This document shows, piece after piece, positions 41,888 to 50,060 of a stretch of 64,000 nt of DNA. Each line of letters starts with the position of its first letter. Position 1 is the first letter of the stretch. The position numbers were made by a program, and so were the translations under genes. This DNA comes from Dromiciops gliroides (taxonomy: Eukaryota > Chordata > Mammalia > Microbiotheria > Microbiotheriidae), in contig NC_057866.1 in the NCBI RefSeq assembly GCF_019393635.1, forward strand, positions 11,170,223 to 11,234,222. Reading direction: 5' to 3'. Below the pieces are notes generated by a model, which saw only the letters and a list, made by a program, of their open reading frames with translations, had not been told where the DNA came from and searched no databases.

Positions 41888-41936
41888 ACCACCTGCCAGT
41901 TTTCTCCTCCCAGAACTTCTGAGCCCCCAGGAGCTG
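41888..41936 (+). other. Probable noncoding exon 1 of the actin gene
   Basis: Begins about 25-30 bases after the TATA box and ends before the donor GTAAGA at 41937. All vertebrate sarcomeric actin genes have such a short noncoding exon followed by an intron ending a few bases before the ATG. Here the acceptor is at 43167-43168, 17 bases before the ATG. The exact start is inferred. Confidence 0.65.
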
Positions 41937-42124
41937 GTAAGAACCCAGGAATGCCTGGCCTTCCACTCACTTCTCCTCCGGTGGGGTAGGGCATGGGACC
42001 CCAGCTGTTTGACCTGGGGCAGGGAAGAGTCCATCGTGGCTAAACCTGAGCCAGGGGGTGGCTGCAGCATTTCAGCAGCTCAAAGATTCTTGCAGAAGGA
42101 GTGCGCAGCTGTTACTAGGCAAAG

Positions 42125-42415
42125 GAGGGGAGACAGAGAGACAGAGATAGAGTCAGAGACAGAGAGAGGGAGAAGAGAGGAGAAGAGAGGAGAGGAGAGG
42201 GGAGGGGAGGGGAGGGGAGGGGAAGGAGAAAGAGAGAGAGACAGAGAAAGAGAGAGAGATGGAGACTGAGGTAGAGAGAGACAGAGAGAGGAGAGAGCAG
42301 GGGAGAGAGAGAAAGAGAGGGAAAGACAGAGAAGACAGAGAGAGAAGATGAGAGAAACAGAGAGGATAGTCAGAGACAGAGAGGGAGGGAGGGGGAGAGG
42401 GAGGAGAGAGCAGAT
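42125..42415. repeat. GA-rich tract in actin intron 1
   Basis: Irregular agagacagagagagg units for about 290 bases. Low complexity, no coding value. Confidence 0.9.
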
Positions 42416-49100: not shown

Positions 49101-49767
49101 CACTTACTAGCTGTGTGACCCTGGGCAAGTCACTTAACCCCAATTGCCTCACTTAAAAAACAACAAAAAAACAAAAACAAGAACAGAGGGAAAGGTCTGT
49201 GAGTCTAGTAAGGGCAGAGTTCAGGGCCAGACCTGTGTTTCCATGGCCTAATGGCTCATGGGGAGGAAACTCTCACCATGTGGTGGTCACCTCAAGCTTC
49301 CTAGAGAACCAACGTCATGGACAGCATGTGTCCAAGGAGGCTTGTGACCCTGGGCCTTCCAAGCTTGCTACCTTGATCCAAGGGACACTCTGCCTCTCAC
49401 CAAACAGTTGGGGCTGATACCTGGATGGGGGAGATGCCCAGGGGCCCCGAAGGTGGCCCCTCCCCAGTCTTCCGCATTGGTTTTTGTCCGTGAGGGAATG
49501 TCTGCCGCACAGCAGCTGGTTTGGGATCCAAGCAATCATGTCCAGTTGGGTCCTAAGCAGAGGCCCCACACAAACCTGAGGAAGGGCCTTGCTGGACACA
49601 CGGAATCTCTTCTCTTCCCACAGATCATTGCCCCCCCTGAACGCAAATACTCCGTCTGGATTGGGGGATCCATCCTGGCCTCCCTGTCCACCTTCCAGCA
49701 GATGTGGATCACCAAGCAGGAGTATGACGAGGCCGGCCCCTCCATCGTGCACAGGAAATGCTTCTAA
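43186..49767 (+). CDS. Sarcomeric-type alpha-actin, complete and intact
   Basis: Forms thin filaments and binds ATP and myosin in striated muscle (family knowledge). Six coding exons: 43186-43314, 44482-44806, 45407-45568, 46838-47029, 47886-48067 and 49624-49767 (129, 325, 162, 192, 182 and 144 bases), all GT-AG, total 1134 bases = 377 aa. Exon sizes and phases equal those of ACTA1/ACTC1, without the two extra introns of smooth-muscle actins. The start is gccaccATG encoding MCDEDE, with C-terminus SIVHRKCF. From memory it differs from human ACTA1 at only four mature residues: T5V, S52A, C217G and M299L. Leu299 is cardiac-like, while DEDE and Thr358 are skeletal-like. C217 is nearly invariant in actins, so Gly is odd. 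It lies between COX8A and NAA40, opposite in strand to both. Not a retrocopy. The closest named paralogue (ACTA1 or ACTC1) is undecided, so no symbol is given. Confidence 0.95.
43335..43665. repeat. Purine tract followed by pyrimidine tract in actin intron 2
   Basis: 43335-43425 is agagacagagagag-like, then 43440-43665 is almost pure C/T (ccctccccctttccctcttc type). On opposite strands the two halves could pair loosely. They produce long but meaningless frames. Confidence 0.9.
44170..44230 (+). repeat. MIR fragment in actin intron 2
   Basis: Reads tctgaacctcagtttcctct and tctgtaaaaggggggc. Confidence 0.5.
45945..46105 (-). repeat. WSINE1-type SINE in actin intron 4
   Basis: Reverse-strand copy in the intron between coding exons 3 and 4 of the actin CDS, with duplication tgaagacctagattt at 45930-45944 and 46106-46120. 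Confidence 0.95.
46128..46420. repeat. CT-rich tract in an actin intron
   Basis: tctgtctctgtctctgtctg-like low-complexity sequence directly after the SINE, resembling the 33.8-kb tract. Confidence 0.85.
46600..46705 (-). repeat. Old mammalian repeat with MIR core
   Basis: Reads cacagctggaagagttcatc, tgacagatgaggaaacaggt and gatttgtccaagatgacaca. Ancient, family uncertain. Confidence 0.5.
47170..47475. repeat. Two MIR fragments in opposite orientation
   Basis: 47185-47310 (ccactttatagatggggaaa, ctgaggctgacatgattttg) is reverse. 47345-47465 (aggacctgggttgggatctg, taggaccttgagtaagtcc, ttttctcatctgcagag) is forward. Both lie in the actin intron before the exon at 47886. Confidence 0.6.
48453..48613 (-). 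repeat. WSINE1-type SINE, first of a tandem pair
   Basis: Reverse-strand copy in the last actin intron. The left flank aatgcttatttttt at 48439-48452 recurs after it (48614) and again after the second SINE (48780). Confidence 0.93.
48628..48779 (-). repeat. WSINE1-type SINE, second of a tandem pair
   Basis: Reverse-strand copy using essentially the same target as its neighbour; three copies of aatgcttatt result. Confidence 0.93.
49019..49178 (+). repeat. WSINE1-type SINE
   Basis: Sense copy in the last actin intron with a perfect 17-bp duplication aagaacagagggaaagg at 49002-49018 and 49179-49195. Confidence 0.95.
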
Positions 49768-50060
49768 GTCTCCAGCCACACAGCCTCCTGTCACTGCATT
49801 CTTGGCCCTTTCCTATTGCTTCTTCCTAGCCTTGCCAAAGCACACGCCCGCCATCTTTTCCACTTGGGCTGCTGTCCCCCCTGTGGCCGAGGGGCAGCAG
49901 CCACTGCTGTGGTAAAGGGAGACTCGTTCCTCTTCCTCCTTGGCAGGCGCCGTCCCCACTGTAACTTTGGCCTTGGAGAGCAGGGTAGCCAAGTGGTCTT
50001 TCTGAGAGAGGGAAACAACCTGTTTTCTGTATCGCAATAAAGCGTTGGAAAGGAAAATCG
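49768..50060 (+). other. Actin 3' UTR and poly(A) signal
   Basis: A repeat-free stretch of about 270 bases after the TAA. AATAAA lies at 50036-50041, followed by a GT-rich region (cggtgtccattgtcc). Cleavage is expected near 50060. Confidence 0.85.

What the first reader, a model, noticed from the sequence alone, without database searches (positions are those of the whole stretch)
41888..50060. An intact fifth-type alpha-actin gene between COX8A and NAA40
Seen: a complete 377-aa sarcomeric-class actin with all five ACTA1-type coding introns, a TATA box, a perfect CArG box, a noncoding first exon and a poly(A) signal. From memory, the human NAA40-COX8A interval has no actin, and placental mammals have only ACTA1, ACTC1, ACTA2 and ACTG2 as muscle actins. 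Inference: either an ancient muscle actin kept in marsupials and lost in placentals, or a DNA-level duplication in this lineage. Intron retention excludes a retrocopy.
Basis: partly seen in the sequence, partly recalled or inferred. Interest (0 to 1): 0.9.

Follow-up and report, generated by a model that had tools for sequence, protein, structure and literature searches.

The report
Seventh, ancient muscle actin in marsupial
The genome of a South American marsupial carries, besides the six actin genes usually credited to mammals, a seventh intact muscle-type actin gene that appears to be very old and kept in working order, so the six-actin rule probably does not hold for every mammal.

Summary
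Window 41888-50058 (+) is a complete 377-aa striated-type alpha-actin: one noncoding and six coding exons, clean splice sites, TATA box, perfect CArG box, poly(A) signal, in the order MACROD1-OTUB1-COX8A-[actin]-NAA40. A contig-length match points to Dromiciops gliroides as host. The same assembly holds separate ACTA1, ACTC1, ACTA2, ACTG2, ACTB and ACTG1, so this is a seventh conventional actin, neither a retrocopy nor a misplaced ACTA1 or ACTC1. It differs from ACTA1 by 4 residues but by 132 synonymous codons. Four-fold-site divergence (0.44) falls among the old paralogue pairs (0.41-0.53); besides SINEs and some short matches, DNA similarity to ACTA1 is confined to coding exons. It groups with ACTA1 (bootstrap 95-98). 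I read it as an old ACTA1-side paralogue under strong purifying selection, probably a striated thin-filament actin. It may belong to 'alpha4' (ACTA4), a group named by synteny in 2019; that paper was not held, so membership is untested. Presence in other marsupials, absence in placentals and expression could not be tested. Real and unusual for a mammal, but a new member of a known kind.

The parts
41758..41767 (+). CArG box CCAAATATGG (serum response factor site), 100 bp upstream of the TATA box
   Evidence: the same decamer stands 77 bp upstream of a TATATAAA in this genome's ACTA1; ACTC1 has CCAAATAAGG 83 bp upstream of its TATAAA
41858..41863 (+). TATA box TATAAA
41888..41936 (+). noncoding exon 1 (start inferred from TATA distance), donor GTAAGA
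43169..43314 (+). exon 2: 17 nt of 5' UTR, ATG at 43186 in GCCACCATG context, codons 1-43
44482..44806 (+). exon 3, codons 44-151 and first base of 152
45407..45568 (+). exon 4
46838..47029 (+). exon 5, contains Gly219 (Cys in the other six actins of this genome)
47886..48067 (+). exon 6
49624..50058 (+). exon 7: codons 331-377, TAA stop 49765-49767, 3' UTR; end inferred, about 20 bases after AATAAA at 50036-50041
18815..19722 (-). COX8A (2 matched segments), neighbour upstream of the actin
11679..15297 (-). OTUB1 (7 matched segments)
8114..8251 (+). part of a MACROD1 macro-domain exon (the matched residues only)
62927..63948 (-). NAA40, three matched segments of its C-terminal half; the gene runs out of the window

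Best explanation
A functional, ancient fifth muscle actin gene (seventh conventional actin of this genome), sister to ACTA1, lying between COX8A and NAA40. Shown: intact structure, separate identity from all six canonical actins, deep synonymous divergence with an almost frozen protein, a CArG-TATA promoter layout like that of ACTA1 and ACTC1. Inferred: it arose by an old duplication in early vertebrates, most likely as a whole-genome-duplication paralogue of ACTA1; SRF acting on the CArG box drives its transcription in striated muscle; the protein enters sarcomeric thin filaments. Two of its four differences from ACTA1, S52A (in subdomain 2, the mobile part of the protomer) and C217G (loss of a cysteine; mature numbering, residues 54 and 219 of the reading frame), are the likely carriers of any isoform-specific property. 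It is probably the gene class called alpha4 (ACTA4).
For: All six canonical actins found elsewhere, told apart by recalled diagnostic residues. 132 synonymous against 4 nonsynonymous codon differences from ACTA1 over 377 codons on the exact splice of both genes (one search gave 131 on codons read from tblastn segments). Over 366 unmasked codons NG86 gives dN 0.013, dS 0.92 and YN00 dN 0.007, dS 1.88. Four-fold divergence 0.438 (95% CI 0.360-0.513), against ACTB-ACTG1 0.406, ACTA1-ACTC1 0.485, ACTA2-ACTG2 0.530. All 6 exons are diverged (19/50 to 14/28 at four-fold sites), so no sign of recent gene conversion. Outside the coding exons blastn against the ACTA1 locus finds SINE copies and some short matches. 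The window gene and ACTA1 join with bootstrap 95 (all sites) and 98 (third positions) in 100 replicates, aLRT 92 in a codon model. It keeps L301, while ACTA1-like proteins of a rattlesnake, an owl and a poison frog have M301, as if it left the ACTA1 line before that change. Same CArG decamer at a similar distance from TATA as ACTA1. One of six EHD_N matches lies 0.87 Mb from the window on C6 and another 9.0 Mb from ACTC1 on C2, as EHD1 and EHD4 do by recall in human 11q13 and 15q14-15: one family in line with a 2R block.
Against: No RNA data. Synonymous sites are near saturation, so dS cannot tell a 2R origin from one at any time before the therian ancestor; median human-opossum dS is near 1 by recall. 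L301 could be a reversal. Beyond the CArG box and TATA, promoter similarity to ACTA1 lies within the range of shuffles (score 85.5; 300 shuffles mean 70.1, sd 7.9, maximum 98). The codon-model tree did not recover ACTA2 with ACTG2, so tree signal is limited. ACTA1 (C4:150 Mb) has no EHD_N match nearby (the one on C4 is at 379.6 Mb). Three other families planned for the block test did not complete.
Confidence: 0.8

Rival explanations
1. A DNA-level duplication of ACTA1 in the marsupial lineage only (after the split from placentals).
For: Nearest relative in this genome is ACTA1; shares T360 and the DEDE N-terminus with ACTA1.
Against: Four-fold divergence 0.44, about as deep as ACTB-ACTG1 and ACTA1-ACTC1; outside coding exons only SINEs and short matches remain; L301 is the state of ACTC1 here and of a fish alpha-actin that also has T360 (P0069), not of the tetrapod ACTA1-like proteins seen.
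Confidence: 0.12
2. A decayed or unexpressed relic whose protein was kept similar by gene conversion from ACTA1.
For: No expression evidence was available; its branch is longer than that of ACTA1 (0.138 against 0.072).
Against: No stop, frameshift or broken splice site; divergence in all six exons, so no converted tract seen; 132 synonymous against 4 nonsynonymous codon changes.
Confidence: 0.06
3. A misplaced or misassembled ACTA1 or ACTC1.
For: None found.
Against: ACTA1 on C4 and ACTC1 on C2 are both present and separate; no N in the window; neighbours are the expected MACROD1-OTUB1-COX8A-NAA40.
Confidence: 0.01

Closest known systems
ACTA1 (skeletal muscle alpha-actin)
   Same: 373 of 377 residues identical; same five coding-intron positions; CArG CCAAATATGG upstream of TATA.
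   Different: Different locus and neighbours; V7, A54, G219, L301 (reading-frame numbering); 132 synonymous codon differences.
ACTC1 (cardiac alpha-actin)
   Same: Striated class, L301, CArG-type box upstream of TATA.
   Different: Six residue differences: positions 4, 5, 7, 54, 219, 360; four-fold divergence 0.55.
ACTA4 / alpha4 actin group (Witjes et al. 2019, Mol Phylogenet Evol 141:106632)
   Same: Described, in passages of PMC7870945, as a group found by synteny that falls with striated ACTA1 or ACTC1 in trees.
   Different: Its defining neighbours and species list could not be read, so identity is a lead, not a test.
Frog 'actin, alpha skeletal muscle 3' (P0097, Rhinophrynus dorsalis)
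   Same: Striated-type actin that also lacks the usual Cys219, having Ala.
   Different: Substitutions E4D, V7T, A54S, M178Q, G219A, T360S, plus an insertion in that record; its locus is unknown to me.

Membership tests
Conventional actin (PF00022) | Full-length actin sequence of 375-377 aa | tested here: met
   377 aa, E = 1.5e-256 to chain 12bw_A, alpha skeletal muscle actin; PF00022 matches at this place in the genome
Muscle (alpha) actin | Met-Cys-acidic N-terminus and muscle residues C12, L18, V131, N164, A274 | tested here: met
   shares the muscle state where ACTB and ACTG1 of this genome differ
Striated (ACTA1/ACTC1) class | V19, T91 and coding introns without the two extra introns of the smooth-muscle genes | tested here: met
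   ACTA2 and ACTG2 of this genome have C19, S91 and extra splits near codons 86 and 123
ACTA1 orthologue | Locus and residues of ACTA1 (T7, S54, C219, M301) | tested here: not met
   A separate gene with all four ACTA1 residues exists on C4
ACTA4 / alpha4 group | Published syntenic neighbours of the group | not testable with these tools
   Original paper not held; only citing passages seen
2R paralogue of ACTA1/ACTC1 | Linked gene families duplicated in the same blocks | tested here: inconclusive
   EHD_N: one match near the window, one on the ACTC1 chromosome 9 Mb away, none near ACTA1; PF01603, PF02149, PF00648 not answered
Functional expressed gene | Spliced transcript in muscle | not testable with these tools
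   No RNA data held

The most novel reading that the evidence does not exclude
The 'six actins of mammals' is a placental rule: marsupials keep a seventh, expressed striated actin that builds thin filaments with an altered subdomain 2 (S52A) and without Cys217, giving some muscles a filament with different stiffness or redox behaviour, and placentals lost it.
Probability: 0.4. Interest if true: 0.72.

Novelty: new member of a known kind. Interest (0 to 1): 0.5.

Why it matters
Papers state that mammals have six actins (opening lines of the abstracts of PMC2949686 and PMC10957077, seen in the listing). A seventh, conserved muscle actin in a marsupial would mean that the placental set results partly from loss, and gives a natural test of what a fifth muscle actin does. 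It differs from this genome's ACTA1 at only four sites, one of them in subdomain 2 (boundaries by recall), where a structural comparison of skeletal, cardiac, beta and gamma actins reports no substitutions (PMC10072879, passage seen). So few differences make isoform function directly testable.

Tried and rejected
Searched prokaryote genome contigs for relatives in the hope of vertebrate contamination: 87 confirmed, 80 listed. None of the 80 record titles names a vertebrate; most are archaeal. Five contigs with bacterial titles encode eukaryote-like actin at 77-91% identity; of these, the four whose N-terminus I could read do not have the muscle Met-Cys start. Not used.

Protein search: 7984 scored, 120 listed. 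The database is clustered at 90% identity, so orthologues of this gene may be hidden inside clusters; none of the 120 has Gly at residue 219.

Promoter alignment to ACTA1 lies within the range of shuffles, so I rest only on the CArG and TATA arrangement. The first tblastn printed nothing and was repeated. In one search the guessed start of ACTC1 exon 3 was wrong, so the ACTC1 comparisons of that call are not used.

Block test: only EHD_N was answered; calpain, B56 and KA1 families were not. A cytochrome b request meant to name the host did not complete; the contig length served instead. The pig paper that uses the symbol 'ACTA4' (passages) names it only as one actin-cytoskeleton target among others; not used.

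Literature: in the listings of ten searches (several showed only part of their hits) I saw no paper describing an actin at NAA40-COX8A or a fifth muscle actin of marsupials. Most subscription papers, including the 2019 one, are outside that library, so this is no claim that it is unpublished.

Full report
WHAT IS THERE. Reading the window shows a gene on the + strand with a TATA box at 41858, a perfect CArG box at 41758, a noncoding first exon (41888-41936, start inferred), six coding exons joining to 377 aa without an inner stop, GT-AG introns of 1232, 1167, 600, 1269, 856 and 1556 bases, and AATAAA at 50036. Coding introns fall after codons 43, 151+1, 205+1, 269+1 and 330; cutting this genome's ACTA1 at the same positions gives AG and GT borders and a full 377-aa actin. 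The best match among solved structures is an alpha skeletal muscle actin chain, with four differences: V7 for T, A54 for S, G219 for C, L301 for M.

WHERE. Flanks are MACROD1 (+), OTUB1 (-), COX8A (-), then the actin (+), then NAA40 (-), each matched to named PDB chains (first located with recalled human proteins). That this is the order of human 11q13, and that the human interval has no actin, is recall. The window's COX8A protein finds five proteins at E <= 0.001, five of five from marsupials. The best, 87% identical, is a COX8A-like protein of Dromiciops gliroides on a contig of 496,996,644 bases, exactly the length of contig C4 of the window's genome; so it is a paralogue on another chromosome, but the length identifies the assembly. 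I take the host to be Dromiciops gliroides, whose reference assembly is mDroGli1.pri, GCF_019393635.1 (PMC13429303, passages).

IS IT EXTRA? A whole-genome search with PF00022 listed 122 matching places; 102 of 277 first-look candidates were scored, so it is not an exhaustive census, and many places are intronless or stop-bearing copies. Among the intron-bearing loci fetched, the six canonical actins are told apart by recalled diagnostic residues: ACTA1 on C4 near 150.43 Mb, ACTC1 on C2 near 183.95 Mb, ACTA2 on C2 near 11.83 Mb, ACTG2 on C2 near 689.7 Mb, ACTB on C1 near 527.9 Mb, ACTG1 on C4 near 214.8 Mb. The window gene is a seventh. A54 and G219 occur in none of the other six.

HOW OLD? 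On the exact splice the window gene and ACTA1 differ at 132 of 377 codons synonymously and at 4 nonsynonymously. Four-fold-site divergence is 0.438 (CI 0.360-0.513), between ACTB-ACTG1 (0.406) and ACTA1-ACTC1 (0.485); the order is not decisive (0.83 of 1000 bootstrap replicates below ACTA1-ACTC1, 0.73 above ACTB-ACTG1). Each of the six exons is diverged: 11/24, 19/50, 14/28, 11/25, 11/22, 8/20. blastn against the ACTA1 locus finds the six coding exons, SINE copies and a number of short matches; no long intron or flank homology survives. Unrooted trees of the seven genes over 345 codons join it with ACTA1 (95 and 98 of 100 bootstraps; codon-model aLRT 92), with the window branch about twice as long; the codon tree did not recover ACTA2 with ACTG2. 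Saturation means that dS shows 'old' but cannot choose between the vertebrate whole-genome duplications and a later pre-therian event. Two further hints. It has L301, while ACTA1-like proteins of a rattlesnake, an owl and a poison frog have M301 (12 of the 120 listed proteins have M there). And one of six EHD_N matches lies 0.87 Mb from the window, another 9.0 Mb from ACTC1, the pattern expected, by recall of human 11q13 and 15q14-15, if the window gene and ACTC1 sit in duplicated blocks. No such match lies near ACTA1 and the remaining families did not complete, so the block argument is only suggestive.

HOW IT LIKELY WORKS. The same CArG decamer stands 100 bp upstream of TATA here and 77 bp upstream in ACTA1; ACTC1 has a one-base variant 83 bp upstream. 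This is the layout of SRF-driven striated muscle promoters (general knowledge); the rest of the promoter is no more alike than shuffles allow. The protein, 99% identical to ACTA1, should enter sarcomeric thin filaments. The changes most likely to matter are S52A in subdomain 2 and C217G (mature numbering; subdomain boundaries recalled). A structural comparison of four isoforms reports no substitutions in subdomain 2 (PMC10072879, passage). Expression and any filament property are inference.

WHAT IS KNOWN. A 2021 paper states that synteny analyses by Witjes and colleagues (2019) added two groups, epsilon1 (ACTE1) and alpha4 (ACTA4), the latter grouping with striated actins (PMC7870945, passages). 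The 2019 paper is not held. I think the window gene is probably ACTA4, but its neighbours and species range in that paper are unread, so this is a lead. A frog 'alpha skeletal muscle 3' protein also lacks Cys219, which may or may not be the same gene. Papers still give six actins for mammals (abstract openings listed).

VERDICT. Real, intact, old, and outside the standard mammalian set; a new member of a known kind. What would raise it is expression and the demonstration that marsupials as a group kept what placentals lost.

Noticed in passing
window 42130-42420 and 43430-43660: Introns 1 and 2 of the actin carry long strand-biased tracts: 91% purine over 291 bases and 94% pyrimidine over 231 bases.
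   Followed up: no
window 45985-46110, 48497-48613, 48656-48773, 49017-49138, 50321-50440: Repeats that look like marsupial SINEs (by eye and recall) in and after the actin; the same element lies between the first two coding exons of ACTA1.
   Followed up: partly
window 53931-54401 (-): 156-aa open frame that looks like a piece of a LINE reverse-transcriptase ORF (by eye).
   Followed up: no
G000, loci L001-L008: Eight intronless actin copies, 89-92% identical to the window protein over their main segment; 5 of the 8 have no stop inside. Probably retrocopies of a cytoplasmic actin.
   Followed up: no
P0115 (Alca torda) and P0119 (Varanus komodoensis): Actins mixing smooth-muscle and cytoplasmic residues (C19, S91, V105, G312, M331); possibly the ACTE1 group.
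   Followed up: no
C4:454257515-454257631 and other places: Nine COX8 matches over the cut-off in the genome, two with an inner stop; the C4 one is presumably the RefSeq 'COX8A-like' protein found.
   Followed up: partly
L010, upstream of the ACTC1 start codon: A long TTTCC / TCTC pyrimidine tract, like the one in intron 2 of the window gene.
   Followed up: no
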